DNA from: Sphingomonadales bacterium
Lineage (GTDB): Bacteria; Pseudomonadota; Alphaproteobacteria; Sphingomonadales; Sphingomonadaceae
Direction: 5' to 3'
Length of the DNA: 63,151 nt
NCBI GenBank assembly: GCA_017309275.1
Contig: JAFKLT010000056.1
Location: forward strand, 1 to 63,151
The notes under the pieces are model-generated. The model searched no databases. It had not been told where the DNA came from and saw only the letters and a program-made list of their open reading frames with translations. The position numbers and the translations under genes are program-made. Positions 18,599 through 61,352 of this stretch are shown here, one piece after another (the first letter of the stretch is position 1; every line of letters begins with the position of its first letter).

Positions 18599-18639
18599 CT
18601 CTCGCTTTCAATATGCTTGTCATGGCGACAATGCGATAC

Positions 18640-18658
18640 TAGTGTGTGACAAGCAAGT
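18640..18658 (+). promoter_or_regulatory. Regulon operator, copy C
   Basis: TAGTGTGTGACAAGCAAGT retains the TAG end and the half-site CAAGCAAGT of the consensus and is weaker than copies A, F and G. It occupies the divergent promoter of SDR 2 and the monooxygenase, 10 bases from the monooxygenase ATG. Confidence 0.55.
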
Positions 18659-18668
18659 GGAGAGAGTA

Positions 18669-21359: not shown

Positions 21360-21408
21360 AAACTCCCAGGATCGACCGAGAGCGTCGCGATTGAGAGGAT
21401 GTCTGCAA

Positions 21409-22494: not shown

Positions 22495-22503
22495 GGAACT
22501 AAC

Positions 22504-25360: not shown

Positions 25361-25480
25361 ATGCCGATGGCTGGCGCATATCTGGATCAACTGCCTTGGC
25401 CAGAATTTGGTCGGAGAGATTCTGTGATCGTGGAGATCAAATCGACCCGGCCTTGCGCGAGCCTGAGGTTCCGGTCTTGA
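25361..25480 (+). CDS. Possible 39-residue leader ORF coupled to the ligase gene
   Basis: An ATG at 25361, preceded by GAAGAGG, opens a 39-codon frame (MPMAGAYLDQLPWPEFGRRD, then basic residues) that ends at TGA 25478-25480, overlapping a TTG start of the ligase as TTGA. The same overlap form is used at the mutase/GTPase junction. It could be a coupling leader, or simply an accident near an ill-defined ligase start. No homology recognised. Confidence 0.3.
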   Translation: MPMAGAYLDQLPWPEFGRRDSVIVEIKSTRPCASLRFRS

Positions 25481-27093
25481 GCGCGCCGGTCGAAATGGCT
25501 CGATCGGGGTCGGCGTCTTACGAGGGCTCAAAGACCTCACCCGTCAGCTTGGGCCTTCAGCCCTCGCCGCTCGTGACCGAGGGTATCGGGCGCGTGGCTC
25601 TCGGCGACCTGATGCGGCGTTCGGCGCGCCGCTTCCGCGACAAGGCAGCGGTGGTCACCCCATCGAGCACCATCACCTTCGGCGAGCTCGACGACAAAGC
25701 GAACCGCTGCGCCAATATGCTGCTCGAAAAAGGCGCAAAGCCCGGCGACCGGATCGCGACCATCTGCGCGAACAGCATCGACTTCATCGTCACCATCTTC
25801 GGAATTCACAAGGCCGGGCTCGTCTGGGTTCCCATCAATCCCGCCCTCTCGGCGGACGACCGGGCTTATATTCTCAATCATACCGAGGCCGCCATCGTTA
25901 TCGCCGATGCGAACAGTGGTGAGGCGGTCCCTGGCGGTACCGAAGGTGAGCCGTTGGTGCTGACGCTCGGTCCCGATTTCGATGCAAGACTCGAGGCTGC
26001 GTCCAACCGCGAACCCGATCTGCCGATTCACGAGCGTGACCTGACAATGATCATGTACACGAGCGGGACGACATCGCGGCCCAAGGGCGTCATGCACTGC
26101 AATCTGGCCGTCTATGCCACCGTGATGTGCAACATCGGCGAATGGATGGTCACGCGCAACGATCGCATCCTGATCGTCTTGCCGCTCTTCCATGTGTCGG
26201 CGCACTGCCTCCTGACGACATTCCTCGCCGCCGGCGCGACCGTCGTCCTCCACAACGGCTTCGAACCCGGACAGGTGCTGACGACGATCGATCAGCAAAA
26301 AGTGAGCTTCTTCGTCGGGCTGCCGATGATGTACGCCGCGATGATGGAGCATCCGGTCCGCGACACGCTGGACCTCGCATCGCTGCGCTACTGCATCTAC
26401 GCGATGGCCCCCATGCCCGGACCTTTGCTGCGGCGGCTGCTCGTCGAGTTTTGCCCGACCTTTGTCCTGTCCTCGGGCCAAACCGAGATGTACCCGAGCA
26501 CGATGATGCTGCGTCCGGAGCAGCAGTTGCTCAAGGAGGGCAATTATTGGGGCGAGCCGTCGATCGTCAACGACGTGGCGATCATGGCGGAGGACGGCAC
26601 GCTGCTGCCACATGGCGAGATCGGCGAGATCGTGCATCGCGGTCCGAACGTCATGCTCGGCTATTATAAGGATGACGCTGCAACCGCTGAATCGCGGCGC
26701 TTCAGCTGGCATCATACCGGCGATCTGGGCGTCATCGATGACGACGGCCAATTGCTTTTCGTCGACCGCCTGAAGGACATGATCAAAAGCGGCGGCGAGA
26801 ATGTTTCGTCGGTCAAGGTCGAGCAGGTCCTGCTGCAATGCCATCTGATCGCGAACGCCGCTGTGATCGGCGTGCCGCACCCGCGCTGGCAGGAGGCCGT
26901 CGTCGCGGTGATCATGTTGAAGCCCGGCGAAACCGCCGAATCCTGGCATATCCATATGTACTGCCGCGAGATGCTCGCGCCGCATGAAGTGCCCAAGGCC
27001 TTCGAGTTCGTCGACGATCTTCCGCTCACCGCGACTTCCAAGCTCCGCAAGGTCGAGCTGCGCAATCGCTTCATCAATTTGTTCGGAGGCTGA
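25477..27093 (+). CDS. AMP-binding acyl-CoA synthetase
   Basis: An ANL-superfamily ligase (ATP, acid and CoA to acyl-CoA, AMP and PPi). Core motifs: MIMYTSGTTSRPKGVM (P-loop, A3), SSGQTEMYPS (A5 region), HHTGDLGVIDDDG (A7), VDRLKDMIKSGGENVSS (A8) and the C-terminal catalytic Lys in LPLTATSKLRKVEL. It would activate the pathway acid before the mutase or dehydrogenases. The start is uncertain: TTG 25477 has GAGG eight bases upstream and overlaps the short ORF; ATG 25495 and TTG 25396 are alternatives. Two bases separate its stop from the next start. Confidence 0.88.
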   Translation: MSAPVEMARSGSASYEGSKTSPVSLGLQPSPLVTEGIGRVALGDLMRRSARRFRDKAAVVTPSSTITFGELDDKANRCANMLLEKGAKPGDRIATICANSIDFIVTIFGIHKAGLVWVPINPALSADDRAYILNHTEAAIVIADANSGEAVPGGTEGEPLVLTLGPDFDARLEAASNREPDLPIHERDLTMIMYTSGTTSRPKGVMHCNLAVYATVMCNIGEWMVTRNDRILIVLPLFHVSAHCLLTTFLAAGATVVLHNGFEPGQVLTTIDQQKVSFFVGLPMMYAAMMEHPVRDTLDLASLRYCIYAMAPMPGPLLRRLLVEFCPTFVLSSGQTEMYPSTMMLRPEQQLLKEGNYWGEPSIVNDVAIMAEDGTLLPHGEIGEIVHRGPNVMLGYYKDDAATAESRRFSWHHTGDLGVIDDDGQLLFVDRLKDMIKSGGENVSSVKVEQVLLQCHLIANAAVIGVPHPRWQEAVVAVIMLKPGETAESWHIHMYCREMLAPHEVPKAFEFVDDLPLTATSKLRKVELRNRFINLFGG

Positions 27094-27095
27094 GC

Positions 27096-28706
27096 GTGGC
27101 GATTATCGAAAGCATGGCCATCGCCGAGAGCGAAGCATTCAAGCACAACCGCTCGGCGCACCTGGAATTGATCGGCGACTTTCGGGCGCTCGAAGCCAAG
27201 GTGCTGGCGGCGTCCGCCCGCGCCGGCCCCAAATTCGCCAAGCGCGGACAATTGCTGCCGCGCGATCGTGTCGCGTTGCTGCTCGACCGTGACGCGCCAT
27301 TTCTGGAGCTGTCGACGCTCGCCGGCATCGGCATGCACGACGATGACGGCGTCGAGAATGTCTATGGCGGCGGTGTCATCGCCGGGATCGGTTTCGTCTC
27401 GGGCGTCCGCGCGATGGTGTTCGCGAGCGACGCCGGCATCAAGGGCGGTGCTGCGCATCCAATGGGCATCAAGAAGCAGCTCCGCGTCCAGGACATCGCA
27501 ATCGAAAACAAGCTGCCCTATATCCAGCTGGTCGAAAGCGCGGGCGCGAACCTCAATCTGCAGGCCGAAATGTTCGTCGAGGGCGGCCGCACTTTTGCCA
27601 ACCTCTCGCGCATGTCCGCTCTCGGTCTGCCGACGATTACGGTGGTCCACGGCTCATCGACGGCGGGGGGGGCGTATCAGGTCGGCCTCTCCGATTATGT
27701 CATCATGATCCGCGGCCGCTCCAAGGTATTTCTGGCCGGCCCGCCTTTGCTAAAGGCAGCCACGGGCGAAATTGCCCGTGATGAAGATCTTGGCGGCGCC
27801 GTGCTGCACACCCGGGTGACAGGGGTCGGCGACTATCTGGCAGAAAGCGATGCGGACGGGCTGCGCCAGGCGCGCGAGGTTCTTGCAAAGTTGCGCTGGG
27901 ATCGAAGCCTGCCGCAGCCGGCCAAGCCCGGTCCCCGCTACGACAGCGAAGAATTGCTCGGGATCGTCTCGCCCGACTACCGCAAACCCTATGACGTGCA
28001 CGAAGTCATCGCCCGCATCGTCGACGATAGCGATTTCACCGAGTTCAAGGCGGAATATGGGCCGCAGACCGTTTGCGGTCACGCCCGGATCGAAGGCCGT
28101 GAGCTTGGCGTCATCGGTAACAACGGGCCGATCGATGCGCAGGGTGCAACCAAGGCCGCGCAGTTCATCCAGCTCTGCTGCCAATCGCGAACGCCGCTGC
28201 TGTTCCTCCAGAACACGACGGGGTTCATGGTCGGGGTGGAGGCGGAAACGTCGGGTATCGTCAAACATGGGTCGAAGCTGATCCAGGCTGTCACCAACGC
28301 GTCGGTGCCAAAGGTCACCATCCAGATCGGCGCGAGTTTCGGGGCTGGCGCCTATGCGATGTGCGGCCGGGCGTTCGGTCCGCGCTTCATCTTTTCATGG
28401 CCGAACAATCGCTTGTCGGTGATGGGCGGAGAACAGGCGGCAAAGGTCCTGACGATCGTCGCTGAAGACGGTGCCGCGGCGCGCGGCGTCGAGCCCGACC
28501 ATGCGGGACTGGCGGCGATGTCCGAAAGGCTGATCGCGCAATATGACCGCGAAGGCGAGGCGCTGTTTGCGACCGCGCGCCTCTGGGACGACGGCATCAT
28601 CGACCCGCGCGACACGCGGCGGGTCGTGGCCTTCTGCCTGGACACATGCACCGAGGGCGATGCGCGCGAGCCGGCGCGAAACAATTTCGGGATTGCGCGG
28701 CTGTGA
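27096..28706 (+). CDS. Acyl-CoA carboxylase beta subunit (methylcrotonyl/geranyl-CoA carboxylase-like carboxyltransferase)
   Basis: A 536-residue carboxyltransferase, the family's usual length, with both crotonase-fold halves: GGGVIAGIGFVSG, HGSSTAGGAYQVGLSDYVIM, FLAGPPLLKAATGE and, in the second half, LFLQNTTGFMVG, KVTIQIGASFGAGAYAMCGR and MGGEQAAKVL. It transfers CO2 from biotin to an enoyl-CoA. The substrate pocket differs from standard MCC: KKQLRVQDIAIENKLPYIQL is followed by VESAGANL in place of the DSGGANLPRQ-type sequence, so 3-methylcrotonyl-CoA should not be assumed. GTG start; stop overlaps the hydratase start (GTGA). Confidence 0.85.
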   Translation: MAIIESMAIAESEAFKHNRSAHLELIGDFRALEAKVLAASARAGPKFAKRGQLLPRDRVALLLDRDAPFLELSTLAGIGMHDDDGVENVYGGGVIAGIGFVSGVRAMVFASDAGIKGGAAHPMGIKKQLRVQDIAIENKLPYIQLVESAGANLNLQAEMFVEGGRTFANLSRMSALGLPTITVVHGSSTAGGAYQVGLSDYVIMIRGRSKVFLAGPPLLKAATGEIARDEDLGGAVLHTRVTGVGDYLAESDADGLRQAREVLAKLRWDRSLPQPAKPGPRYDSEELLGIVSPDYRKPYDVHEVIARIVDDSDFTEFKAEYGPQTVCGHARIEGRELGVIGNNGPIDAQGATKAAQFIQLCCQSRTPLLFLQNTTGFMVGVEAETSGIVKHGSKLIQAVTNASVPKVTIQIGASFGAGAYAMCGRAFGPRFIFSWPNNRLSVMGGEQAAKVLTIVAEDGAAARGVEPDHAGLAAMSERLIAQYDREGEALFATARLWDDGIIDPRDTRRVVAFCLDTCTEGDAREPARNNFGIARL

Positions 28707-29518
28707 CCGGGGGCATGATCGACACTCCGCAGATGTCGGTGTTGCGGCTGGAGCAGCGCAGCGGCGCGCTTTTCGCAACGATCGACGATCCCGCGACGCG
28801 CAACGCGATTTCCGACCCGCTGCTGGCCGATTTCGACCTGCTGTTCTCGCATTATCGCGCCGACCCGGCCGTTCGCGCCCTCGTTCTGCAAGGCAATGGC
28901 CGTATATTTTGCGCCGGTGCCGATTTGAGCGGCAAGACCCTCGGGGCATCGAGCGACGATCCGCATGCCGAGATGGTCGAACTGTCGATCCGCGGCGCGC
29001 GTGTTTTCGGCGGCCTCCACGCCTTCCCCAAGCCGGTGATCGCGGTGGTCGAGGGCGCTGCGATGGGCGGTGGCATGGGACTGGCCGCATGCGCCGACAT
29101 CGTCCTCGCCTCACCGGGTGCCAGCTTTGCCCTCTCCGAAGCGCGCCTTGGCCTCGTAGCGGCTCAGATCGCACCCTTTGTGGTCGCGCGTCTCGGCCCG
29201 GCCACCACGCGCCGTCTCGCGCTGACCGGCAGCCGGTTCGATGCGGCACAAGCGGCGAGACTTGGCTTTGTCGATGAATTGCTGGCCGATCGCTCTGCGA
29301 TCGATGCCCGGCTGGACGTCATCCTGACCGAGATACGCGCCTGCGCCCCTGGCGCCCTCGCGGCGACGAAAGCATTGCTCAACGGCTTGGCGGGATTTGA
29401 CGCCGCCGCCTTTTCGCAAGTCGCAGCCGAAGTTTTCGCTGAAGCCGTCCTCGGCGAAGGCGCCGAGGGCATCGCAGCGTTCAAAGAGAAGAGACCGCCG
29501 GCATGGGCCACGACATGA
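28703..29518 (+). CDS. Enoyl-CoA hydratase, LiuC/AtuE-like (methylglutaconyl-CoA hydratase type)
   Basis: A 271-residue crotonase. It has the oxyanion loop IFCAGADLSG, GAAMGGGMGLAACADI and FALSEARLGLVAAQIAPFV. Of the two classical hydratase glutamates the first is Gly (GMGLA) and the second is kept (SEARLGL); this is the pattern of the LiuC/AtuE hydratases of leucine and acyclic-terpene degradation. It would hydrate the carboxylase product. The GTG at 28703 overlaps the preceding stop as GTGA; ATG 28715 is possible. The stop overlaps the next start as ATGA. Confidence 0.85.
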   Translation: MTGGMIDTPQMSVLRLEQRSGALFATIDDPATRNAISDPLLADFDLLFSHYRADPAVRALVLQGNGRIFCAGADLSGKTLGASSDDPHAEMVELSIRGARVFGGLHAFPKPVIAVVEGAAMGGGMGLAACADIVLASPGASFALSEARLGLVAAQIAPFVVARLGPATTRRLALTGSRFDAAQAARLGFVDELLADRSAIDARLDVILTEIRACAPGALAATKALLNGLAGFDAAAFSQVAAEVFAEAVLGEGAEGIAAFKEKRPPAWATT

Positions 29519-31458
29519 AGCCGTTTTCGAAAATCCTGATCGCCAATCGCGGTGAAATCGCGTGCCGCGTGATCCGCAGCGCCAAGGCAAAGGGCTATGC
29601 GACGGTTGCCGTTTTCAGCGACGCGGACGCGGGCGCGCGGCATGTGCTCGAAGCCGATGAAGCCTTCCGCCTGGGCGGCGGGCCGCTGCAGGAGTCCTAT
29701 CTGTCGGCCGAACGGGTGCTGGCGGCGGCGCGCGCGACCGGTGCCGATGCGCTCCATCCCGGATACGGCTTCTTTTCCGAAAATGCCGATTTCGCCGAGC
29801 AGTGTGCCGACGAGGGGATCACCTTCATCGGACCGATGCCCGATTCGGTGCGGGTGATGGGTGACAAGGCGCGATCGAAGCGGCGAATGATCGAAGCGGG
29901 CGTCCCCTGTGTGCCGGGTTATGAGGGCGATGATCAGGACGACGCCCTGTTCGTGCGCGAGGCCGACCGGATCGGCTACCCCGTCATGGTCAAGGCCTCG
30001 GCGGGTGGTGGCGGACGCGGCATGCGCCTTGTCCACGATCGCAGCGACCTCGCGGCAGCGCTGGTCTCGGCGCGGTCGGAGGCAAAGAATGCGTTCGGCG
30101 ATGATCGGCTGCTGCTCGAGCGCGCCGTCGTCGATGCGCGCCACGTCGAGATTCAAGTGTTCGGCGATCGCTTCGGATCGGTTGTGCATCTTGGCGAGCG
30201 CGACTGCTCGGTCCAGCGTCGGCACCAGAAGGTCATCGAGGAGGCGCCATCGCCTGCGGTGGACGAGGACCTGCGGCGCCGAATGGGCGACGCGGCGGTT
30301 CGCGCTGCGGCGGCGATCGATTATGTCGGGGCGGGAACCGTCGAATTTCTGCTCGGCAAGGATGGCGAATTCTACTTCCTCGAAATGAACACCCGCCTTC
30401 AGGTCGAACATCCGGTGACCGAATGTGTCACGGGCATCGACCTCGTCGATCTCCAGATCGATGTGGCGGCGGGACTGCCCCTGCCCTTTGCTCAGGACGA
30501 TATTTCGATCTCGGGTCACGCGATCGAGGTAAGGTTCTACGCCGAGGACCCGCGACAGGAATTTTTGCCGCAGACCGGCGTCGCGTCGATCTGGCAGCCC
30601 GCCACCGGCGACGGCGTGCGCATCGATCACGGCCTGGTGACGGGCCAGGTCATCAGTTCATTCTACGATCCGATGATCGCCAAGATCATCGCCACCGGCG
30701 CGAACCGCGACGAAGCACTGCGGCGCCTCGTCCAGGCGGTTCGCGGCACGCACTTGCTCGGCGTCGCGACGAACCGCGAGTTCCTGCTCGACGCCTTGTC
30801 GGTCGAGGAATTCCGGCGCGGCGATGCGACGACGGCCTTCATCGGCAAGCATTATGCTGACGGCTTCAAGCCGGGCGAAGGCGACCCAGTTGCGATCCTG
30901 CTTGCCGCCATCCTTGCCGCCGAAACGGCCGGACAGGGTTGGTCGTCGAATGGCAAGCAGGCGCATCAGGTCAATCTCGCCAGCGACGGCAGCGAAACCA
31001 TCGTGCGCGTAGCCCGGGCCGGGCAGCGCTGGTCGGCGCAAAGCGACGCACATTCGGCGTCGATCGCCATCGTCGAACGCGGCGACACGCTGGTCCGGTT
31101 CGAGGTCGATGGCCTGCTCCGGCGGGCGGTCTATCTTTGTGACAGTGATGAGATCGCGATCGATCTCGACGGGCGGGTCTATCGGTTCGAGGATACCACC
31201 TACCGCGCTCCGTCGCGCGCCAGCGCCGGCGGTGACGGCGTGATGCGCGCCCCGATGACCGGCACCATTACCGCGGTGCGGGTCGGCCAGGACCAGCTCG
31301 TGGCCCGCGGCGACGTGCTTGCGGTGCTCGAGGCGATGAAGATGGAACAGCAGATCATCGCGCCGATCGGTGGCAAAGTCACCACCGTTGCGGTCGCCGC
31401 GAACCAGCAGGTAGCGGCGCGCGACATCCTCTTCATCGTCGAGGGGGAGCCGGCATGA
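29515..31458 (+). CDS. Acyl-CoA carboxylase alpha subunit (biotin carboxylase plus biotin carrier; LiuD/AtuF-like)
   Basis: About 647 residues: biotin carboxylase N domain (KILIANRGEIACRVIRSAK), ATP-grasp (KASAGGGGRGMRLV, ERDCSVQRRHQKVIEEAPSP, EMNTRLQVEHPVTE), a linker (BT-like) domain, and a C-terminal biotinyl domain with VLEAMKMEQ (biotinyl-Lys about 609). It carboxylates biotin with ATP and bicarbonate and works with the carboxyltransferase two genes upstream; interruption of the pair by the hydratase gene is also seen in liu/atu operons. Start at the ATG 29515 overlapping the hydratase stop (ATGA); ATG 29503 is in frame. Confidence 0.9.
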   Translation: MKPFSKILIANRGEIACRVIRSAKAKGYATVAVFSDADAGARHVLEADEAFRLGGGPLQESYLSAERVLAAARATGADALHPGYGFFSENADFAEQCADEGITFIGPMPDSVRVMGDKARSKRRMIEAGVPCVPGYEGDDQDDALFVREADRIGYPVMVKASAGGGGRGMRLVHDRSDLAAALVSARSEAKNAFGDDRLLLERAVVDARHVEIQVFGDRFGSVVHLGERDCSVQRRHQKVIEEAPSPAVDEDLRRRMGDAAVRAAAAIDYVGAGTVEFLLGKDGEFYFLEMNTRLQVEHPVTECVTGIDLVDLQIDVAAGLPLPFAQDDISISGHAIEVRFYAEDPRQEFLPQTGVASIWQPATGDGVRIDHGLVTGQVISSFYDPMIAKIIATGANRDEALRRLVQAVRGTHLLGVATNREFLLDALSVEEFRRGDATTAFIGKHYADGFKPGEGDPVAILLAAILAAETAGQGWSSNGKQAHQVNLASDGSETIVRVARAGQRWSAQSDAHSASIAIVERGDTLVRFEVDGLLRRAVYLCDSDEIAIDLDGRVYRFEDTTYRAPSRASAGGDGVMRAPMTGTITAVRVGQDQLVARGDVLAVLEAMKMEQQIIAPIGGKVTTVAVAANQQVAARDILFIVEGEPA

Positions 31459-33236
31459 CGCAGCGAACAATCAGCATCGGCGGCGCATCGGGATTTTGGG
31501 GCGACAGCTCGATCGCCCTGCCCCAGCTGCTCGAGCATGACGGTCTCGACTATATCTCCTTCGACTATCTGGCTGAAGTCACGATGTCGATCCTCGCCCG
31601 CGCCCGCGCGAAGGATCCATCGCTGGGCTATGCGACCGATTTCGTCAGCCTGGTCGAGCGTCACCTGCCGCGGATCGCCGAACGCGGGGTGAAGCTGATT
31701 GCGAATGCCGGGGGCGTCAATCCATCGGCCTGCGCGGAAGCGCTTCGGGCAAAAATTGCGGCCGCCGGCTTGAACCTGCGGGTCGGCGTGGTCACTGGCG
31801 ACGATCTGATCGCGATGCAGCCCGAGCTTCAGACCAGTAGGGAAATGTTCTCGGGCGCCGCGATGCCGTCGCGGCTGATGAGCCTCAATGCCTATCTGGG
31901 GGCCGCACCGATCGCGGCGGCATTGGATGCCGGCGCCGACATCGTCGTCACGGGTCGCTGCGTCGATAGCGCGACCGTGCTTGGCGCGTGCATTCACGCG
32001 TTCGGCTGGTCCATGTCGGACTTCGACAGCCTGTCGGGCGGATCGCTCGCCGGCCACATTATCGAGTGCGGAGCGCAGGCGACCGGCGGTCTCTTCACCG
32101 ATTGGCAGGATGTCGGCGACTGGGCGAATATCGGCTATCCGATCGCAGTGATCGACGCCGATGGTGCGTTCGACGTCATCAAGCCGCAAGGGACCGGCGG
32201 CCTTGTCTCGCGCGGCACGGTCAGCGAGCAGCTCGTTTACGAAATCGGCGATCCCGCGGCCTATCTCCTTCCCGACGTCAGCTGCGACTGGCGGTCGGTC
32301 GAGATCGAAGAAACCGATAACGGGCGGGTGCGGGTCACCGGCGCACGCGGCCGTGCACCGACCGAAACCTACAAGGCCAGCGCAACCTGGCAGGATGGCT
32401 ACCGCGTCGGCGCGACCTGGACGATTATCGGTGAGGCTGCTGCCAGCAAGGCAGCCAAGGTGGGCGAAGCAGTTGTGACGCGAGTCTCGTCGCTGTTGTC
32501 CGCGGCGGGTTCAGCGCCGTTCAGCGAGACTTCGATCGAGATCATCGGCGCCGAATCGAGCTATGGCGCGAACAGCCAGGCGCGAGGCGCGCGCGAGGTT
32601 GTGCTCAAGATCGCCGCGAAGCATGGCGATCCCAAGGCGCTGGAGCTGCTGGTCCGCGAATTCACCTCCGCCGGCACGTCGATGGCGCCCGGATTTACCG
32701 GCATGGGTGGCAACCGCCCCAAGGTCATGCCGCTCGTCCGCCTCTTTTCGACTGCGGTCGACAAGGCGATCGTCGACGTCCAGGTGAATGTCGAAGTCGA
32801 AGGACAAGTGGTCGCTCTGCCGGATGTGCCAAGGCCGTCTTCCGCCAACCCGCCAGTCGATCAGGAGCCCGAACGGTCCACACCGCTTGCTGCGACCGGC
32901 CTTACCAAAGTTCCGCTGATCGAGCTCGCGTGGGGCCGCAGCGGCGACAAGGGCAATCACGCCAATATCGGCATCATTGCGCGGCGGCCCGAATTTCTTC
33001 CCTACATCCGGCATGCACTGCAGCCCGATGTCGTGGGCGCCCTGTTCCAACATTATGCGCCCGCTGAAGTGCGGCGCTTCGACCTCCCCGGCATCCATGG
33101 CCTCAACTTCATGCTCTACGACGTTCTGGGCGGCGGCGGCATCGCCTCGCTGCGCAATGATCCGCAGGGCAAGGGCTATGCGCAAATCCTGCTCGGCATG
33201 GAAATTGCCGTGCCGGCCGATCTCGTCCGTTCCTGA
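31455..33236 (+). CDS. Acyclic terpene utilisation AtuA-family protein
   Basis: A 593-residue protein with the AtuA arrangement: an N-terminal DUF1446 domain (about 1-440; MTQRTISIGGASGFWGDSS, YISFDYLAEVTM, VTGRCVDSATVL, GNRPKVMPLVRLF) joined by a short linker to a C-terminal AtuA-like ferredoxin-fold domain (about 485-593; PLIELAWGRSGDKGNHANIG). AtuA is essential in citronellol/geraniol growth in pseudomonads but its reaction is not established. Here it occupies the place where liu operons have HMG-CoA lyase. ATGA overlap with the carboxylase alpha gene. Confidence 0.88.
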   Translation: MTQRTISIGGASGFWGDSSIALPQLLEHDGLDYISFDYLAEVTMSILARARAKDPSLGYATDFVSLVERHLPRIAERGVKLIANAGGVNPSACAEALRAKIAAAGLNLRVGVVTGDDLIAMQPELQTSREMFSGAAMPSRLMSLNAYLGAAPIAAALDAGADIVVTGRCVDSATVLGACIHAFGWSMSDFDSLSGGSLAGHIIECGAQATGGLFTDWQDVGDWANIGYPIAVIDADGAFDVIKPQGTGGLVSRGTVSEQLVYEIGDPAAYLLPDVSCDWRSVEIEETDNGRVRVTGARGRAPTETYKASATWQDGYRVGATWTIIGEAAASKAAKVGEAVVTRVSSLLSAAGSAPFSETSIEIIGAESSYGANSQARGAREVVLKIAAKHGDPKALELLVREFTSAGTSMAPGFTGMGGNRPKVMPLVRLFSTAVDKAIVDVQVNVEVEGQVVALPDVPRPSSANPPVDQEPERSTPLAATGLTKVPLIELAWGRSGDKGNHANIGIIARRPEFLPYIRHALQPDVVGALFQHYAPAEVRRFDLPGIHGLNFMLYDVLGGGGIASLRNDPQGKGYAQILLGMEIAVPADLVRS

Positions 33237-33274: not shown

Positions 33275-33676
33275 ATGTCGATCGAAGCAAACAAAGCCAT
33301 TGTCCAACAGTTTCTGGCCAAATTCGGAAGCGGCGATGCCGACGGTCTGATTGACAGCCTAACCGACGACGCGACCTGGTGGATCGGCGGCAAGCCCGAC
33401 CAGCTTCCGCAGGCCGGAATGAAGACCAAGGAAGGGATCAGCGCCGTCCTGCGCGGTATCGGCGCGAAGATCCCGGGCGGTATCGACATGCGGATCCGCG
33501 GCATGATCGGCGAAGGCGACAAGGTCGCTGCCGAGGTCGAAGCGCATGGCGAGATCACGAACGGGCGCATCTACAATAATGAATATCACTTTCTGTTCAC
33601 GATCCGTGATGGCCGCATCGCGGCGGTCAAAGAATATAATGACACACTTCATCTGAAGACCATTTTCGCGGCGTGA
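33275..33676 (+). CDS. SnoaL-like / NTF2-fold small protein
   Basis: A 133-residue cone-fold (NTF2-like) protein: MSIEANKAIVQQFLAKFGSG, LTDDATWWIGG, VEAHGEITNGRIYNNEYHF and VKEYNDTLHLKTIF. Families with this fold include ketosteroid isomerases, limonene-epoxide hydrolases and polyketide cyclases; in catabolic operons they often act as hydratases or isomerases. The Asp/Glu pattern does not settle which. GGAG precedes the ATG at 33275; it lies between atuA and the mutase. Confidence 0.75.
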   Translation: MSIEANKAIVQQFLAKFGSGDADGLIDSLTDDATWWIGGKPDQLPQAGMKTKEGISAVLRGIGAKIPGGIDMRIRGMIGEGDKVAAEVEAHGEITNGRIYNNEYHFLFTIRDGRIAAVKEYNDTLHLKTIFAA

Positions 33677-33739: not shown

Positions 33740-35416
33740 ATGATTAGCGCCGACACGAAGCCGGAAGAGAGCCCCTATGCGCTTTGGCAGCAAACGGTGT
33801 CGGCGCGGTACAAGGATCGCTCCTTTGTCGCGCGCAACCGCTCGGGCGTCGAGGTCGATCCGGTTTACGGTGGGCTCGACCGTCATGGCAACGAAGCCGA
33901 AATGCCCGGGCAATATCCCTATACGCGCGGCATTTACCCGATCCATTATCAGTTCCAGCCGTGGATGGACCTCCAGATCATTGGCTTCGGCCTGCCCTCG
34001 CAGACCCGCGAGCGGATGGATCTTCTGCTCGAACAGGGCGGCTCGAAGGGCTATTTCGATCGCGAAGCCTACAATTTCATCTTCGATATGCCGACGTCGA
34101 TGGGCTATGATCCCGACCACCCCGGGGTGCGCGGCAGCATCGGCGACTGCGGCATTTCGGTCTGCAAGGCGCGCGATTACGAGATCCTGCTCGACGGCAA
34201 GGATCTGGCGAAAACGACGGTCTCGATGGTCCTCAACGCGGGGTCGCCGGCCATGCTCGGGCTGTATCTCGCAGCGGCCAAGCGCCGCGGCTTTGCATTC
34301 GACAAGCTTGGCGGCAATCTCACCAACTATATCTGGGATTTCTTTGGCCATAGCGGCGGAACGAACTTCTCGCCGCGCGGCAGCTACCGGCTGATCGCCG
34401 ACATCGCGGCCTATTGCGCCGAGCATGTGCCGCTGTGGAATCCCCTCACCATCAGCGAGCATAATATCTGCGAAGCCGGCGCCACGAACGTCCAAGCCGT
34501 CGCCTATTCGATCGCTGCGATCATTGCGGTCAACGAGGAGTGCGTGAAGCTCGGCATCGACCCCGACACCGTCGTACCACGCTTCGGATTTCACGTCCGC
34601 TACGGCGAGAATTTCTTCGAAGAGGTCGCGAAGACCCGCGCGCTGCGGCGCGTCTATGCGAAGGTGAACCGCGAGCGTTTCGGCTGCAAGAAAAGCGGTT
34701 CGCTCCAAGCGCGCATCCATGCCCAGACCGCAGGGTCGCTGCTGACCGCGCAGCAGCCGCTGAACAATCTCGTCCGCAACGCTTATGGCGCGCTGGCGGC
34801 CGTCCTGTCCGGCGCCAACGGCATGACGATCAACGCCTATGACGAGGCACTCGGCCTGCCGACCGAAGAAGCGGTGACGCTGTCGCTGCGCACAAGCCAG
34901 ATCATTGCTGAGGAAACCGGCGCCGTTCATGTGTCCGACCCGTTCGGCGGATCCTATTATGTGGAAGCGCTCACCGACGAGATCGAACGCCGGGTGTTCG
35001 AGATCATCGCCGACATCGACGACCGCGGCGGGCTGATCGCCTGCATCGAGTCAGGCTGGATCAAACAGCAGGTCTCTGCCGCCGCCTACCAATGGCGTCA
35101 GGAAATCGAGAGCGGCGCGCGAACGATGGTCGGCGTCAACAAATATACCACCGACGAACCCGAGCAATTTGCGGTGTTCCAGCCCGATCCCGAAGCCGCG
35201 CGCCTTGCGATCGCCGACGTCGAGCGGCACCGCCGCGAACGCGATGCGACGCGCTGCGCGGCGGCGCTTGAAGACCTGCGCCGTGCGGCGGTCGAGGTCA
35301 ACGAAGGCCGGGCGATCGGGTCGGTAATGGCAAACCTTGTCGCCGCCGCCGAAGCCGATGCAACGCTCGGCGAGATGCAGGCCATTCTTCACGAAGTCTT
35401 CGGGCGCAACAAATAG
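33740..35416 (+). CDS. B12-dependent acyl-CoA mutase large subunit, divergent active site
   Basis: A 558-residue TIM-barrel subunit of an AdoCbl acyl-CoA mutase, without the fused B12 domain, as in isobutyryl- and 2-hydroxyisobutyryl-CoA mutases. Family blocks: PYTRGIYPIHYQFQPW, FIFDMPTSMGYDPDHP, EAGATNVQ, HAQTAGSLLTAQQPLNNLVR and SDPFGGSYYVEALT. By hand alignment to P. shermanii methylmalonyl-CoA mutase, Tyr89 is Ile80, Arg87 is Leu78, Ser114 is Asn112, Gln197 is Thr195, Arg207 is Ser205, Tyr243 is His241 and His244 is Asn242. It therefore lacks the carboxylate-binding Arg207 and cannot be read as a methylmalonyl-CoA mutase. Ile at position 89 recalls 2-hydroxyisobutyryl-CoA mutase, but that enzyme's Asp is not present. 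Substrate unknown. Confidence 0.88.
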   Translation: MISADTKPEESPYALWQQTVSARYKDRSFVARNRSGVEVDPVYGGLDRHGNEAEMPGQYPYTRGIYPIHYQFQPWMDLQIIGFGLPSQTRERMDLLLEQGGSKGYFDREAYNFIFDMPTSMGYDPDHPGVRGSIGDCGISVCKARDYEILLDGKDLAKTTVSMVLNAGSPAMLGLYLAAAKRRGFAFDKLGGNLTNYIWDFFGHSGGTNFSPRGSYRLIADIAAYCAEHVPLWNPLTISEHNICEAGATNVQAVAYSIAAIIAVNEECVKLGIDPDTVVPRFGFHVRYGENFFEEVAKTRALRRVYAKVNRERFGCKKSGSLQARIHAQTAGSLLTAQQPLNNLVRNAYGALAAVLSGANGMTINAYDEALGLPTEEAVTLSLRTSQIIAEETGAVHVSDPFGGSYYVEALTDEIERRVFEIIADIDDRGGLIACIESGWIKQQVSAAAYQWRQEIESGARTMVGVNKYTTDEPEQFAVFQPDPEAARLAIADVERHRRERDATRCAAALEDLRRAAVEVNEGRAIGSVMANLVAAAEADATLGEMQAILHEVFGRNK

Positions 35417-35429
35417 GAAACCGATCGCC

Positions 35430-35846
35430 ATGCCAGATACTGCGCCGCAGCCGCGCGTCCTCCTGACCAAGAGCTTCATCGACAGCCATGATCGCGCCAT
35501 TGCGACCATCGCGCTCGCGCTGCGCGACGCCGCGATGGAAGTGGTGCTGATCGACTATGAGCAGCCCGAAGATGTAGTCACCGTCGCGCTCCAGGAAGAC
35601 GTCGATATTATCGGGCTGAGCTTCATGTCGGGAGGCCAGGTCGAAACCACGCAAAAGATCGTCGCCGAGCTACAGCGTCGCGAAGTCCCCGATTTGCCGG
35701 TGGTGGTCGGCGGGGTCATTCGTCCGTTCGACGTCGCGCCGCTCGAAGCCGTGGGCGTCCGGGAAATCTTCCGCGGCGGCGCACCGCTGACCGATGTTGT
35801 CGCGACGTTCGATCGCCTTGCCCGCGCCTATCGGAGTCACGTTTGA
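35430..35846 (+). CDS. B12-binding small subunit of the acyl-CoA mutase
   Basis: A 138-residue Rossmann-like B12-binding protein, the length of separate small subunits such as IcmB/HcmB. The DxHxxG motif is present as DSHDRA (18-23): Asp and the cobalt-ligand His20 are kept, the final Gly is Ala. The second and third motifs appear as LSFMSGG and VVVGGVIRP. It should bind adenosylcobalamin base-off/His-on and pair with the large subunit 13 bases upstream. Its TGA overlaps the TTG start of the GTPase. Confidence 0.9.
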   Translation: MPDTAPQPRVLLTKSFIDSHDRAIATIALALRDAAMEVVLIDYEQPEDVVTVALQEDVDIIGLSFMSGGQVETTQKIVAELQRREVPDLPVVVGGVIRPFDVAPLEAVGVREIFRGGAPLTDVVATFDRLARAYRSHV

Positions 35847-36832
35847 CCGGGACGCGCGCAGGATCTGACGCGGCTTCGCTGCTGAAGGCGGTCCGCGATC
35901 GCGATCCGCTGGCGATTGCGCGCGCCATCACCGCGATCGAAAACCGCACGGCGGTAGGAACCGAACTGGCGGTCGCGGTGCGCGGCCGGGCCAGCCGGTG
36001 CCGAACCCTCGGCGTGACCGGGCCACCGGGCGCCGGCAAGTCCTCGCTCATCAATGCGCTTTTGCCCGAATTGCTGCCGAGATACCGCCGCGTCGCGATC
36101 CTGACGGTCGATCCATCGAGCCCGATCAGCGGCGGTGCGGTGCTGGGCGATCGCGTTCGCATGGCGGCGCACAGCGCAAATCCGGACGTTTTCATCCGGT
36201 CGCTCGCTGCGCGCGGCCACCTCGGCGGGGTGACGCGAACCACAAGATCGGTCATGGATCTACTGGCGGCCGCCGATATGGACCTCGTGATCGTCGAAAC
36301 CGTCGGCACGGGTCAGTCAGAAGTCGAAGTTGCCAACCTGACCGATGTGAAGATCGTCGTGTGCGCACCCGGCCTTGGCGACGAGATGCAGGCGATGAAG
36401 GCCGGCGTATTGGAAATCGCCGACCTGTTGGTCGTGAACAAGGCGGATCTGCCCGACGCCGCGCGAACGGCCACACATTTGACAGCCATGCTGCACCACC
36501 GGGGCCATGAGGAACGCCGGTCCATGCTGTCGGTATCGACGCAAACTCGGGACGGCCTCAAGGCGCTCGGCGACGCGATCGACGACAGGTTCGCTGGGCT
36601 TCCGGCCGGCCCGCCCGACGCCGCCGCCGGAGGCGGGATATCACGATCGACGCTCGCTCAGGACGTTGCCGACGCCGCGGCCGCGCTGTTGCTCGGCACG
36701 TCCGACCCGCGCCTGACCACAATCGTGGAACACATGTCGCAGGGAAAATTGTCGCGGCACGAGGGCGCTAAAGCTGCCTTGGAGCTCCTGACCGACCTCG
36801 ACGGCCCTTCAGAAGCAAGGATCTATTCGTGA
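35843..36832 (+). CDS. MeaB/ArgK-family GTPase, mutase chaperone
   Basis: A 329-residue G3E-type GTPase that loads and protects AdoCbl in acyl-CoA mutases. Motifs: Walker A GPPGAGKSS (60-68), LTVDPSSPISGGAVLGDRVRM (switch region typical of MeaB), VETVGTGQSEVEV (switch II/Walker B) and NKAD. Direct coupling to the mutase genes fits a dedicated chaperone, as with MeaH in 2-hydroxyisobutyrate operons. TTG start overlapping the preceding stop (TTGA); its own stop overlaps the next start (GTGA). Confidence 0.92.
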   Translation: MTGTRAGSDAASLLKAVRDRDPLAIARAITAIENRTAVGTELAVAVRGRASRCRTLGVTGPPGAGKSSLINALLPELLPRYRRVAILTVDPSSPISGGAVLGDRVRMAAHSANPDVFIRSLAARGHLGGVTRTTRSVMDLLAAADMDLVIVETVGTGQSEVEVANLTDVKIVVCAPGLGDEMQAMKAGVLEIADLLVVNKADLPDAARTATHLTAMLHHRGHEERRSMLSVSTQTRDGLKALGDAIDDRFAGLPAGPPDAAAGGGISRSTLAQDVADAAAALLLGTSDPRLTTIVEHMSQGKLSRHEGAKAALELLTDLDGPSEARIYS

Positions 36833-37726: not shown

Positions 37727-40195
37727 TCAGGTGAGTATCCCGGCCGCTTCGAGCGCCTCGATCGTCGCCGCATCCAGCCCCAGAATGTCTCGCAAGACAT
37801 GCGCGTTGTCGCGCCCGTAACAGGGCGCGGATCGTGCGTATTCGGCGGGCGTGCGCGCGAGCTGGAATGGCGACGCCTCGACGACGGCGGTGCCCGAGAG
37901 AGAATGCGGCAGATGGACGAGGTGATTACGCGCCACAATCTGAGGATCATTGCCAAATTCTTCGATCGAAACCAGACGATGCGCGGGGATGCCGTTTTCC
38001 TGCAGAAGCTGTTCGATGACCGTGACCTCCTGCTGCCTAGCCCATTGCTCGAGCCGACGTTCCAAGGCGTCCTCGTCGCTCTTCCGCCCCTGGAATGTTT
38101 TCCATGCGGGCTCGTCGATTTGCGCGATCGCCGCAAGGCGTTCCCATTGCGCATCCGACTGCACCGCGATTGCGATCCAGCTATCCTCGGCATTGGTCCG
38201 GAAAACGCCGTGCGGGGCCATGGCGAGGTCCCGATTGCCCATCGGTCCCTGAACATTTCCCGTAACCGATGTTTCTGCGATCTGGGCGGCAAGGAACTGG
38301 ACGCCAGCTTCGGTCTGCGACACGTCGAGCCAACATCCCCGACCGGTACGCCGACGATGGTCCAGCGCAGCCAGCGTGGCGGGGATACCGAAGCGCGGCG
38401 CGACGAAATCCGTATAGGGGCCATAGGGTCCAACCGGGGTCGCCCCCTCCATTCCAACGAGATTCTGGAAGCCAGCGATCGCTGCGCCATGGTTGCCGTA
38501 ACCCGAGTAGCTGGCGAACGGTCCTGATTGACCGGTCAATGACGTACTGACCATGACCAGACCCGGATTATCTCTTGCCAGCTCGTCATAAGACAGCCCC
38601 CAACGCGCCATCTGCCCGGGCGTGAAGGATTCAACGAGGACATCCGCCCAGCGCGCCAGCGAACGCACGATGTCACGTGCTTCCGGCTTGGACAAGTCGA
38701 GCGACAGGCCGAGTTTTCCGGCGTTGCAGGTCTCATAGAGGGCGGATCGCTGCACATCATAATCGCCCGCTGGGAATGGTCCCATCAATCGCGCCGTCTC
38801 GACACGCTTTGCCGACTCTAGTCGGATAACCGTCGCGCCATAGTCGGCGAGATTTCGGCCGATGAGAGGGCCAGCCACGACCCAAGCAAGGTCGAGCACC
38901 TTGAGCCCGGCGAGGGGTTGCAACGAGGGCTCGGCTGCGATTTCTTCGGGCTGGCTGGTTGCTGACCATTCGCCGAGAATTTGCGCGCGATCGGCATCAA
39001 GCCTCGGCGCGGCAGTCGGGCGCGCGAATCCGTCCGGGCATGCACCGCCGAAGCCCCAAGGCAGCGAATAGTTTCCTTCCGGGCCGGCCACCGTGGCGAG
39101 GAAGCCGCGCGCCGCAAACTGTTCGCTCGCCAGCAGATCGGCAATCGTTTCGATCGGTGCGATACGGATGCCGCGATCGAGCGCGATCTGCATGAGGTTC
39201 GCTTTGCGGAATCGCGCGAGGAAGGCCGACACATGGCGGCGAGCCTCCTCGAGCATTTCCCAGCTGATGTCGCTTTCGAGCCGTCCGTGCAGCGTCGTCC
39301 AGTCCCAGTCGTGAAAGGTCTCGGGAAGCGCGGACTCCTCGATCATCCAAGCGAACAATTTATTGGTCGACGGACCGGTCGCGGGTCCCATCGCCAAGTG
39401 CATTTCCGCAAGCCCGTCGGCAATCGGCCACTTCGATCGCCGGGTAAGCGAGCCGCTTCCGCTGAGATCCATTGGCCCACCCTTGCCGCTCGATAATGTG
39501 GCGCCGGGTCGGGGCACGAAATTCTCATGACCGATGGATTCGGCAAGCACCGCGCCGAGAGTGCATTGCGGAAGGGTTTGAAGAATGGCGAGATCGATAT
39601 GCTGCCCCATTCCACTGCGCCCGCGCTCGGCATGCCCGATCAGGGCAGCTCCGGCGGCGGTTGCAGCGCCGTGTAGATAGGCCTGAGGGGCGCTGAGCCG
39701 AAGCGGCCGGCCCTCGTTGTCGCGGGTGAGTAACAGTGGCCCGCCCGCAGCCCAGAGGATCAGTTCGCTGTCCAGCCAGTCCTTTTTGGGGCCAGTGAGG
39801 CCGTAAGGCGTGATGGATACGTGAACGAGCCTGGGATTAAGCGCCGCCACTGCAGCCGGATCGAGCCAGTCCGGGCGACCGTCACTGGGAGCGGTGGAAT
39901 CAAGCAGAATATCCGCCGACCCTAGCAACTTCGCCCAAGTCTTCGAATCCGTCGCCGGATCGCAGACAATCGAACGCGTCCCAGAGGCGTAGGCGGCCCA
40001 ATAGAACGAGTCTTCACCTTGACTCCAATCGGGCGCGAAAGGAGGCTGAAGTCGACCATCACTGCCGCCTGGCGGCTCCATATGAACCACATCTGCACCC
40101 AGTTGGGCCAAGATGTGCCCGGCCAGCACACCGCGATGATCCGTGACGTCCAGAACCCGATATGGCGAGAGAAAGCCGCTATGGTTGTCTCTCAT
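37727..40195 (-). CDS. Fused double CaiB/BaiF (family III) CoA-transferase
   Basis: About 822 residues made of two family III CoA-transferase repeats (about 1-395 and 400-822). The second has the full pattern PLAGLKVLDLAWVVAGPLI, GATVIRLE and GPYTDFVAPRFG with the catalytic Asp position. In the first the equivalent segment reads RLSAPQAYLHG, apparently Tyr for Asp, so it may be structural, replacing the second chain of the interlocked dimer. It would move CoA between pathway acids. ATG 40195 has GGGAGG nine bases upstream; ATG 40204 would sit on that site. Operator G lies 88 bases upstream. Confidence 0.88.
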   Translation of the reverse strand: MRDNHSGFLSPYRVLDVTDHRGVLAGHILAQLGADVVHMEPPGGSDGRLQPPFAPDWSQGEDSFYWAAYASGTRSIVCDPATDSKTWAKLLGSADILLDSTAPSDGRPDWLDPAAVAALNPRLVHVSITPYGLTGPKKDWLDSELILWAAGGPLLLTRDNEGRPLRLSAPQAYLHGAATAAGAALIGHAERGRSGMGQHIDLAILQTLPQCTLGAVLAESIGHENFVPRPGATLSSGKGGPMDLSGSGSLTRRSKWPIADGLAEMHLAMGPATGPSTNKLFAWMIEESALPETFHDWDWTTLHGRLESDISWEMLEEARRHVSAFLARFRKANLMQIALDRGIRIAPIETIADLLASEQFAARGFLATVAGPEGNYSLPWGFGGACPDGFARPTAAPRLDADRAQILGEWSATSQPEEIAAEPSLQPLAGLKVLDLAWVVAGPLIGRNLADYGATVIRLESAKRVETARLMGPFPAGDYDVQRSALYETCNAGKLGLSLDLSKPEARDIVRSLARWADVLVESFTPGQMARWGLSYDELARDNPGLVMVSTSLTGQSGPFASYSGYGNHGAAIAGFQNLVGMEGATPVGPYGPYTDFVAPRFGIPATLAALDHRRRTGRGCWLDVSQTEAGVQFLAAQIAETSVTGNVQGPMGNRDLAMAPHGVFRTNAEDSWIAIAVQSDAQWERLAAIAQIDEPAWKTFQGRKSDEDALERRLEQWARQQEVTVIEQLLQENGIPAHRLVSIEEFGNDPQIVARNHLVHLPHSLSGTAVVEASPFQLARTPAEYARSAPCYGRDNAHVLRDILGLDAATIEALEAAGILT

Positions 40196-40282
40196 CCGTA
40201 TCATCCTCCCTTCGCGGGCGTCCGAGAACCCTGCGGTGTTGTAATTTGCGCACCATAATGCCCCGCCCCCACACGGGTCAAC

Positions 40283-40301
40283 ACTTGCTTGCGGCAAGCT
40301 A
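40283..40301 (+). promoter_or_regulatory. Regulon operator, copy G
   Basis: ACTTGCTTGCGGCAAGCTA, identical to copy A except for the central base. It lies 88 bases upstream of the CoA-transferase start and marks the right boundary of the regulon. Confidence 0.8.
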
Positions 40302-41915: not shown

Positions 41916-41945
41916 TCGGCGCGACCTGCGCCGAGGGAGATTTTC

Positions 41946-42895: not shown

Positions 42896-42905
42896 GGGCA
42901 GCAAC

Positions 42906-61293: not shown

Positions 61294-61322
61294 GGCGGCA
61301 ATCCATTTACAGCAAAACGAGC

Positions 61323-61352
61323 ACGTCGGCACGACGTATAAGCGCGCCCTCA
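61323..61352 (-). other. Candidate oriT nick region
   Basis: On the minus strand this reads GTGAGGGCGCGCTTATACGT followed by CGTGCCGACG. It resembles the Ti/RSF1010-type nic core (AGGGCGCAATTATACGTCGC) and includes a perfect inverted repeat ACGTCG-GCA-CGACGT at 61323-61337. Its place between divergent traA and traC is where Ti plasmids carry oriT. Comparison made from memory. Confidence 0.6.

What the first reader, a model, noticed from the sequence alone, without database searches (positions are those of the whole stretch)
33740..36832. B12-dependent acyl-CoA mutase with an active site unlike any characterised subfamily
Seen: large subunit, separate small subunit and MeaB-type GTPase in one coupled operon. 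By hand alignment to P. shermanii methylmalonyl-CoA mutase, Tyr89, Arg87, Gln197, Arg207, Tyr243 and His244 become Ile80, Leu78, Thr195, Ser205, His241 and Asn242. Known: Arg207 binds the substrate carboxylate in MCM (Gln in isobutyryl-CoA mutase), His244 is kept in the characterised enzymes, and Ile at position 89 is a mark of 2-hydroxyisobutyryl-CoA mutase, whose second mark (an Asp) is absent. Inference: the pocket accepts a different, probably bulkier or branched, acyl group; a pivalyl/isovaleryl-type rearrangement is one option because isovaleryl-CoA dehydrogenase is encoded in the same regulon.
Basis: partly seen in the sequence, partly recalled or inferred. Interest (0 to 1): 0.87.

Follow-up and report, generated by a model that had tools for sequence, protein, structure and literature searches.

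The report
New branch of B12-dependent acyl-CoA mutases
A soil-type bacterium carries a vitamin-B12 enzyme that should rearrange the carbon skeleton of some CoA-bound acid, but its catalytic pocket is rebuilt unlike the studied relatives it was compared with, so it probably handles a substrate, perhaps a plant-terpene fragment, not yet assigned to this enzyme family.

Summary
The operon encodes a B12-dependent acyl-CoA mutase (large subunit 33740-35416, small 35430-35846, MeaB GTPase 35843-36832). Twelve distinct alphaproteobacterial proteins share all six; four actinobacterial ones (65-70% identical) differ only by Cys for Ser.

The protein lies in a deep clade of mutases lacking His244 (support 100/98), apart from the MCM, ICM-type, HCM and PCM-like rows sampled. 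All 22 distinct His244-less proteins carry a 5-7-residue insertion with an invariant Asn112; none of 78 His244-bearing proteins does.

The steadiest partner is an SDR dehydrogenase, not isovaleryl-CoA dehydrogenase: it follows the mutase in 11 of 12 alphaproteobacterial loci, and in three actinobacteria it is fused to MeaB. A sister lineage has 3-hydroxyacyl-CoA dehydrogenase plus thiolase instead; two other lineages have neither.

Best guess: the mutase moves the thioester off a fully substituted alpha-carbon of a bulky, perhaps terpenoid-derived acyl-CoA, most likely a 2-hydroxy-2-methyl acid, giving a 3-hydroxyacyl-CoA that the SDR oxidises. Pivalyl/isovaleryl-type chemistry is the main rival. 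Clade membership is well supported; the substrate is inferred.

The parts
33740..35416 (+). Large (substrate-binding, barrel) subunit of a B12-dependent acyl-CoA mutase lacking the Arg207 and His244 equivalents
   Evidence: PF01642 509 bits; best solved relatives HCM 4r3u and MCM; residue tables
34034..34075 (+). Clade-specific insertion, about residues 99-112 (QGGSKGYFDREAYN) with Asn112 invariant in the clade
   Evidence: Present in all 22 distinct His244-less mutases, in none of 78 with His244; low-confidence loop in the model (residues 101-108 under pLDDT 50)
34460..34465 (+). His241-Asn242, in the place of Tyr243-His244 of MCM
35430..35846 (+). Small, cobalamin-binding subunit; Lys, Asp and His of the B12 motif kept, DxHxxG reads DSHDRA
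   Evidence: PF02310 65 bits; alignments to 2yxb and 4r3u_C; orthologues
35843..36832 (+). MeaB-type GTPase chaperone, overlapping the small-subunit gene
   Evidence: PF03308 248 bits
36829..37599 (+). Short-chain dehydrogenase, overlapping meaB by 4 bases; steadiest partner of the mutase, fused to MeaB in three actinobacteria
33275..33676 (+). SnoaL/NTF2-like protein directly upstream of the mutase; function unknown
   Evidence: PF12680; best PDB match an uncharacterised NTF2-like protein
31455..33236 (+). AtuA family protein (acyclic terpene utilisation)
   Evidence: PF07287 459 bits; 54% identical homologue beside the distant His244-less mutase of L094
29503..31458 (+). Biotin carboxylase/carrier (alpha) subunit of an acyl-CoA carboxylase
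28646..29518 (+). Enoyl-CoA hydratase family protein (true start may lie downstream); matches the gamma-carboxygeranoyl-CoA hydratase model (146 bits) below its cut-off (426)
27096..28706 (+). Carboxyltransferase (beta) subunit, nearest solved relative geranyl-CoA carboxylase (701 bits; methylcrotonyl-CoA carboxylases 438-496)
25396..27093 (+). AMP-forming acyl-CoA ligase
23908..25059 (+). Acyl-CoA dehydrogenase, nearest solved relatives isovaleryl-CoA dehydrogenases (529 bits)
21391..23790 (+). Kinase-like protein plus acyl-CoA dehydrogenase, matching the two halves of ACAD11 (8v3u residues 9-355 and 373-771)
18570..20171 (+). Flavin monooxygenase, nearest solved relatives Baeyer-Villiger monooxygenases
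37727..40297 (-). Family III CoA-transferase with two domain matches
   Evidence: PF02515, two stretches

Best explanation
Shown: the genes encode a B12-type acyl-CoA mutase (separate large and small subunits, MeaB chaperone) of a deep clade in which His244, Arg207, Gln197 and, in the window clade, Arg87 of MCM are gone and a 5-7-residue insertion with an invariant Asn is present. Inferred mechanism: adenosylcobalamin yields the 5'-deoxyadenosyl radical, which takes a hydrogen from a methyl group on a fully substituted alpha-carbon of a bulky acyl-CoA; the CoA-thioester group migrates to that carbon and the radical is quenched. Asn112 of the insertion and/or Asn242 is proposed to hold the thioester carbonyl in place of His244. 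Most likely substrate class: a 2-hydroxy-2-methyl-type acyl-CoA (as in HCM but with a larger R), giving a 3-hydroxyacyl-CoA that the partner SDR oxidises to a 3-ketoacyl-CoA. This would remove a beta-oxidation block in the degradation of a terpenoid-like compound.
For: Fold and family. Residue pattern fixed over Alphaproteobacteria and Actinomycetota. All His244-less rows in one clade, 100/98. Insertion in 22 of 22 against 0 of 78. SDR or 3-hydroxyacyl-CoA dehydrogenase on the same strand within 3 kb in 17 of 22 His244-less loci against 0 of 29 canonical loci; in the L021-23 lineage it is a 3-hydroxyacyl-CoA dehydrogenase with a thiolase on the other side; MeaB-SDR fusion in L039, L040 and L041. 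Ile at position 89 is shared with the HCM group. Surroundings hint at a bulky branched substrate: geranyl-CoA-carboxylase-like beta subunit, AtuA, Baeyer-Villiger-type monooxygenase, esterase, ACAD11-like pair.
Against: No substrate evidence of any kind. HCM's Asp117 (binder of the hydroxyl, recalled) is Ile114 here. Two His244-less lineages with visible neighbours have no SDR or 3-hydroxyacyl-CoA dehydrogenase within 3 kb: L025/L094, the first branch, has an IVD-like dehydrogenase, AtuA and a hydratase instead, and L146 a hydratase-like and a distant acyl-CoA dehydrogenase gene. The PCM-like group is the sister clade (94/86, just under the starred level). The SDR could act on another group of the substrate. 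I recognised no enzyme in the window that makes a 2-hydroxy-2-methyl acid. The model is mediocre (mean pLDDT 72.8, insertion partly under 50, rmsd near 10 A to MCM/HCM), so the role of Asn112 is a guess.
Confidence: 0.4

Rival explanations
1. Pivalyl/isovaleryl-type mutase of a larger alpha-quaternary acyl-CoA: R1R2C(CH3)-CO-SCoA becomes R1R2CH-CH2-CO-SCoA, which the IVD-like dehydrogenase, the geranyl-CoA-carboxylase-like enzyme and the hydratase/AtuA then process. The SDR serves elsewhere.
For: IVD-like dehydrogenase, GCC-like carboxylase and AtuA in the same operon; an IVD-like dehydrogenase (44%) and AtuA (54%) also beside the distant His244->Asn mutase in L094; the PCM-like group around Xaut_5043 is the sister clade (94/86; its identity as PCM is recalled).
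Against: Close IVD and AtuA homologues were not found in the stretches seen of the other cluster types (some of them short), while the SDR was found in each type. Window residues differ from the PCM-like group at all six sites (LITSHN against RLQNQH).
Confidence: 0.28
2. It is a known-substrate enzyme (methylmalonyl-, ethylmalonyl-, isobutyryl- or 2-hydroxyisobutyryl-CoA) with an unusually drifted pocket.
For: Same fold and about 35-40% identity to such enzymes.
Against: Arg207 and His244 are lost and this state is conserved over two phyla; the same genome has an ordinary MCM (731-aa frame); tree and AU tests. An H244A mutant of MCM is in the PDB (1e1c, title); that it is strongly impaired is recalled. 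Ethylmalonyl-CoA mutase was not identified by name among the rows, so that case is less tested.
Confidence: 0.13
3. The mutase acts on an acyl-CoA with a further polar or charged group, for example a dicarboxylic or keto acyl-CoA bound through the new Arg287/Tyr288.
For: Residues 285-288 (HVRY) stand where MCM has F-W-G-I; His285 and Arg287 are kept in all 16 clade members and Tyr288 in 15 (Phe in L127). Residues of the MCM CoA tunnel (roles recalled) differ too, e.g. Thr77->Ile68, Arg82->Gln73.
Against: No direct evidence for such a substrate. His327/Gln329, which align with CoA-binding His328/Gln330 of MCM (roles recalled), are kept, and CoA ligase or CoA-transferase genes are often nearby, which fits an ordinary acyl-CoA equally well.
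Confidence: 0.1
4. Dead or non-catalytic mutase homologue, like the MCM beta chain, with a structural role.
For: Loss of several catalytic-site residues.
Against: Frames without stops, 86-97% identity among alphaproteobacterial members and 65-70% to actinobacterial ones, with an own B12 subunit keeping the Lys/Asp/His of the cobalamin motif and an own MeaB in most loci.
Confidence: 0.05

Closest known systems
2-Hydroxyisobutyryl-CoA mutase (HCM; 4r3u; rows L046, L047, L052, L024, L029, L030, named by resemblance and recalled marks)
   Same: Separate large and small subunits with MeaB; Ile at position 89; best match in sequence and fold searches
   Different: Word RIQQYH: keeps Arg87, Gln197, Tyr243, His244; Asp where the window has Ile114; no insertion; joining the clades is rejected
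PCM-like group around Xanthobacter Xaut_5043 (identity as pivalyl-CoA mutase recalled)
   Same: Sister clade in the tree (94/86); separate subunits, MeaB, acyl-CoA ligase genes nearby
   Different: RLQNQH at the six sites, His244 kept, no insertion; no SDR or 3-hydroxyacyl-CoA dehydrogenase within 3 kb on the same strand in the 4 loci of the group examined (L053, L059, L144, L145; SDRs lie 3.5-6 kb off on the other strand in two); joining the window clade to it is rejected
Methylmalonyl-CoA mutase (MCM; 1req)
   Same: Fold, type of B12 domain, MeaB partnership (partnership recalled)
   Different: R87, Y89, Q197, R207, Y243, H244 all replaced; insertion
Isobutyryl-CoA mutase and IcmF (4xc6; rows with word RFQQYH)
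   Same: Fold
   Different: Phe89 and Gln207 with His244 kept; no insertion; these rows lie outside the His244-less clade, though they are not resolved as one group
Acyclic terpene utilisation (Atu) pathway
   Same: AtuA, geranyl-CoA-carboxylase-like beta subunit, IVD-like dehydrogenase, hydratase; pathway as in passages of PMC4097962
   Different: The words mutase and cobalamin do not occur in that review's main text; here a mutase-SDR module and a monooxygenase/esterase/ACAD11-like set are added

Membership tests
MM_CoA_mutase superfamily (PF01642) | Profile match over the whole domain | tested here: met
   509 bits, profile 3-512 of 512
B12-dependent acyl-CoA mutase | Cobalamin domain with Lys/Asp/His of the base-off motif | tested here: met
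   K, D and H align with 2yxb and 4r3u_C; the Gly of DxHxxG is Ala
B12-dependent acyl-CoA mutase | AdoCbl-dependent isomerase activity | not testable with these tools
   Needs purified enzyme
Methylmalonyl-CoA mutase | Arg207, Tyr89, His244 present | tested here: not met
   Ser205, Ile80, Asn242
Methylmalonyl-CoA mutase | Inside the MCM clade | tested here: not met
   MCM rows group at 100/100 without the window
Isobutyryl-CoA mutase / IcmF | Phe at 89, Gln at 207 (recalled marks), His244 | tested here: not met
   Ile80, Ser205, Asn242
2-Hydroxyisobutyryl-CoA mutase | Ile at 89 | tested here: met
   Ile80
2-Hydroxyisobutyryl-CoA mutase | Asp at the 117 position (recalled mark) | tested here: not met
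   Ile114
2-Hydroxyisobutyryl-CoA mutase | Clade with the HCM rows | tested here: not met
   Rejected, p-AU 1.4e-5
Pivalyl-CoA mutase | Clade with the PCM-like rows | tested here: not met
   That group is sister to the whole His244-less clade (94/86); joining the window clade alone to it is rejected, p-AU 5.8e-6
Pivalyl-CoA mutase | Pivalyl-CoA/isovaleryl-CoA activity | not testable with these tools
   Needs assay; primary paper not held
Ethylmalonyl-CoA mutase | Clade with named ethylmalonyl-CoA mutases | not tested
   No row was identified by name

The most novel reading that the evidence does not exclude
The His244-less mutases are a separate catalytic class of B12 acyl-CoA mutases in which an inserted loop (invariant Asn112) takes over the job of His244. 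They rearrange terpenoid-sized CoA esters with a fully substituted alpha-carbon, and in the window clade the radical mutase hands a 3-hydroxyacyl product to a dedicated dehydrogenase that in actinobacteria is physically part of the MeaB chaperone.
Probability: 0.3. Interest if true: 0.86.

Novelty: new variant of a known kind. Interest (0 to 1): 0.72.

Why it matters
His244 is treated as a fixture of acyl-CoA mutases (recalled). A conserved clade without it, carrying a matched insertion, would test how the migrating radical is controlled and would widen the set of carbon-skeleton rearrangements open to biology and engineering. It could also show how aerobic bacteria get past fully substituted carbons in terpenoids or synthetic branched acids. 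The MeaB-SDR fusion gives a ready handle on chaperone-mutase-dehydrogenase coupling.

Tried and rejected
Considered and set aside: (1) misalignment as the source of the odd residues: rejected, since phmmer, two MAFFT modes and conserved orthologues agree. (2) Propionate metabolism: the genome has its own ordinary MCM. (3) Reading the pathway from a host strain: Sphingobium sp. WTD-1 is discussed for chloramphenicol use in the passages seen of PMC11446756, which say nothing of this cluster. (4) SnoaL-like protein as an epoxide hydrolase: limonene-1,2-epoxide hydrolase 5aif appears only at E 0.016, so no support. (5) Hydantoinase A/B-type genes of L106 (and their homologues in L100) as an acetone carboxylase: best NCBIfam models are caprolactamase and acetophenone carboxylase, far below cut-off, so not named. 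(6) Structure model for pocket geometry: confidence too low at the insertion; only the fold match was used. (7) Viral contigs: no match.

Limits of the counts; the Fisher value (1.8e-9) overstates the case because rows are related, and because the dehydrogenase queries came from the His244-less loci themselves. By lineage it is two (window clade, L021-23) of four with visible neighbours; L025/L094 and L146 are the exceptions, and L044's contig ends after the small subunit. The 5 misses are L037, L044, L094, L127 (an SDR adjacent but on the other strand) and L146. Of the 29 canonical loci, L128, L129, L132 and L145 have under 3 kb on one side; 143 frames were reduced to 102 distinct proteins and frames under 400 aa were dropped; L027, which has an in-frame stop, is absent there but was in the table and the tree. 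Two rows with P and R at the 244 site have gaps at other sites and look like MCM beta chains (not tested). One search uses 65 chosen rows, not all 102, has long branches (L025, L146, L054, L048), and does not resolve the ICM-type rows.

Literature: none of the titles or abstract starts listed in the ten searches describes a His244-less acyl-CoA mutase clade or a MeaB-SDR fusion; of those papers only passages were seen. Primary papers on HCM, ICM/IcmF and PCM specificity were not held, so their residue marks and the naming of Xaut_5043 as PCM are recalled.
Full report
Observation. The three genes are present as described and match the families claimed: MM_CoA_mutase for the large subunit, B12-binding for the small one, MeaB for the third. 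In the PDB the large subunit matches HCM (4r3u, 363 bits) and MCM large chains (264-310 bits). At the place of HCM Asp117 (numbering recalled) stands Ile114.

Distribution. The gene is rare and patchy. An order-level draw found 1 genome (87%) among 295 others at E <= 1e-112, and none among the 15 same-genus genomes listed. A class-level draw found no close homologue: 10 of 384 others passed E <= 1e-108, at 39-43%. One scan of the GTDB contigs found 14 loci: ten alphaproteobacterial (Sphingomonadales where the title says) at 86-97%, three actinobacterial (Conexibacter, a Solirubrobacterales MAG, Amycolatopsis echigonensis) at 67-70%, and a Chloroflexi MAG at 45%. A draw of 396 genomes of the Conexibacter phylum gave 89 at E <= 1e-112, two of them in this range: Conexibacter itself (70%) and one other (65%); the others listed were at 44% or less. 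A plasmid of Sphingobium sp. WTD-1, predicted conjugative, carries the cluster at 93%. The window genome has a separate ordinary MCM.

Active site across the family. From the loci fetched by then I took 143 frames, 102 of them distinct. At the His244 position 78 have His, 17 Asn, 3 Gly, 1 Cys, 1 Ala; two rows that look like MCM beta chains have other letters. The six-site word is LITSHN in 12 distinct alphaproteobacterial proteins (window included) and LITCHN in 4 actinobacterial ones. Commonest elsewhere are RYQRYH (56, MCM type), RFQQYH (8, ICM type by recalled marks), RIQQYH (6, HCM group) and RLQNQH (5, PCM-like group). The other His244-less words are SATSYN (L025), QVMVYG/QVMTYG (L021-23), EIMWYC (L089) and QVMAHA (L146).

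A shared insertion. With a slower alignment, the stretch opposite window residues 92-122 is 30-31 residues long in all 22 distinct His244-less proteins and 24-25 in all 78 His244 proteins. The extra residues include a Gly-Tyr/Phe pair and an Asn (112) present in all 22. Loss of His244 and gain of this loop go together over the sampled diversity. That the Asn replaces His244 is my inference. The AlphaFold model is too uncertain there to judge (mean pLDDT 72.8, residues 101-108 below 50); as a whole it matches HCM and MCM large chains (query TM-scores 0.77-0.82, rmsd about 10 A).

Tree. With 65 rows all His244-less rows form one group at 100/98. The window clade (9 alphaproteobacterial plus 4 actinobacterial rows) is 100/100. 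MCM, HCM and PCM-like rows are each one group at 100/100; ICM-type rows are not resolved. The PCM-like group is sister to the His244-less group at 94/86, just under the starred level. Holding the window clade with HCM costs 102 log units (p-AU 1.4e-5), with the PCM-like group 73 (p-AU 5.8e-6). An earlier tree of 50 rows also set the His244-less rows apart (100/99). Long branches are present, and ethylmalonyl-CoA or other dicarboxylic mutases were not identified by name.

Neighbourhood. The order large subunit, small subunit, MeaB, SDR is kept in 11 of 12 alphaproteobacterial loci long enough to show it (L037 lacks the last two), while the rest of the cluster changes. Window-type clusters (window, L031, L042, L043, L045) add the IVD-like dehydrogenase, ligase, GCC-like carboxylase, hydratase, AtuA and SnoaL-like gene. 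A second type (L033, L034, L036/L097, L037, L038/L106, L035/L100) has variously a GntR regulator, TonB receptor, Baeyer-Villiger-type monooxygenase, CoA-transferases, ligase and thiolase-like or hydantoinase-type genes. Actinobacterial loci L039 and L040 bring CoA-transferase, hydratase, ligase, thiolase-like and ChsH2-like genes. In L039, L040 and L041 MeaB and SDR are one protein of 522-545 aa, with both Pfam domains well above cut-off; in the fourth actinobacterial locus, L127, an SDR is adjacent on the other strand and no MeaB was detected. In the L021-23 lineage the gene after the small subunit is a 3-hydroxyacyl-CoA dehydrogenase, and a thiolase lies on the other side. Same-strand SDR or 3-hydroxyacyl-CoA dehydrogenase within 3 kb: 17 of 22 His244-less loci, 0 of 29 canonical loci. 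Rows are related; by lineage it is two of four.

What the pathway looks like. The carboxyltransferase subunit is much closer to geranyl-CoA carboxylase (701 bits) than to methylcrotonyl-CoA carboxylases (438-496 bits) and lacks, like it, three residues that the latter have in one loop. The kinase-like protein and first dehydrogenase match the two halves of ACAD11, which by recall handles 4-hydroxyacyl-CoAs. A Baeyer-Villiger-type monooxygenase, an HSL-type esterase, SDRs and a TonB receptor (by comparison with L045) stand upstream. The order ketone, lactone, hydroxy acid, CoA ester resembles the limonene route described in passages of PMC4097962. A terpenoid-like ring compound is a reasonable but unproved source of the mutase substrate.

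Mechanism. The chemistry of the family (recalled) is a radical 1,2-shift of the CoA-thioester group. A dehydrogenase beside the mutase in two lineages, one of them clearly of the 3-hydroxyacyl-CoA type, suggests that the product bears a 3-hydroxy group, as with HCM, whose Ile89 is shared. In the isobutylene degrader ELW1 a 3-hydroxybutyryl-CoA dehydrogenase is likewise encoded in the mutase cluster (passages of PMC13188929). Against this, L025/L094, the first branch of the clade, pairs its mutase with an IVD-like dehydrogenase (44%) and AtuA (54%) and no SDR within 3 kb, which suits a pivalyl-type reaction, and L146 too lacks such a dehydrogenase. I rank the hydroxy-acid reading first, the alkyl reading second. 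Both share the claim that a fully substituted alpha-carbon is relieved.

Verdict. Real, conserved, not a member of any characterised subfamily sampled here; substrate unknown. A new variant of a known kind with an unusually altered catalytic site.

Noticed in passing
window 41586-44737: Arsenic-resistance-like set: ArsR-type regulator and ArsC-like reductase (by eye), low-molecular-weight phosphatase family protein, SBF-family transporter (Acr3-like by recall), FMN reductase family protein.
   Followed up: partly
window 46938-49808 and 54532-56799: Eco57I-type methylase protein (956 aa) and a 755-aa protein without Pfam match, possibly a defence region.
   Followed up: partly
window 58315-61353: MobA/MobL relaxase-helicase protein (1012 aa), suggesting mobile DNA near the catabolic cluster.
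   Followed up: partly
window 15134-17537: The TonB-receptor gene of the cluster appears as two separate frames in the window, while homologues in L045 and L099 are longer single frames.
   Followed up: no
L039 2441-4018, L040 12074-13711, L041 4217-5785: MeaB-SDR fusion proteins in actinobacteria.
   Followed up: yes
L106 12532-16965; homologous genes in L100: Hydantoinase A/B-type gene pair with an aldehyde dehydrogenase in second-type clusters; nearest NCBIfam models caprolactamase and acetophenone carboxylase, far below cut-off.
   Followed up: partly
L026, L028, L078, L079: Mutases with the usual six-site residues but Ile/Gly or Gly/Gly aligned at the His328/Gln330 places; the alignment there was not checked further, and they join no named group.
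   Followed up: no
L146 and L089 (both from the Chloroflexi genome G686): One genome holds two different His244-less mutases, with Ala and Cys at the site.
   Followed up: no
L035/L100: The cluster of the MAG titled Novosphingobium sp. Chol11 lies beside a phage-type integrase gene, pointing to an island.
   Followed up: no
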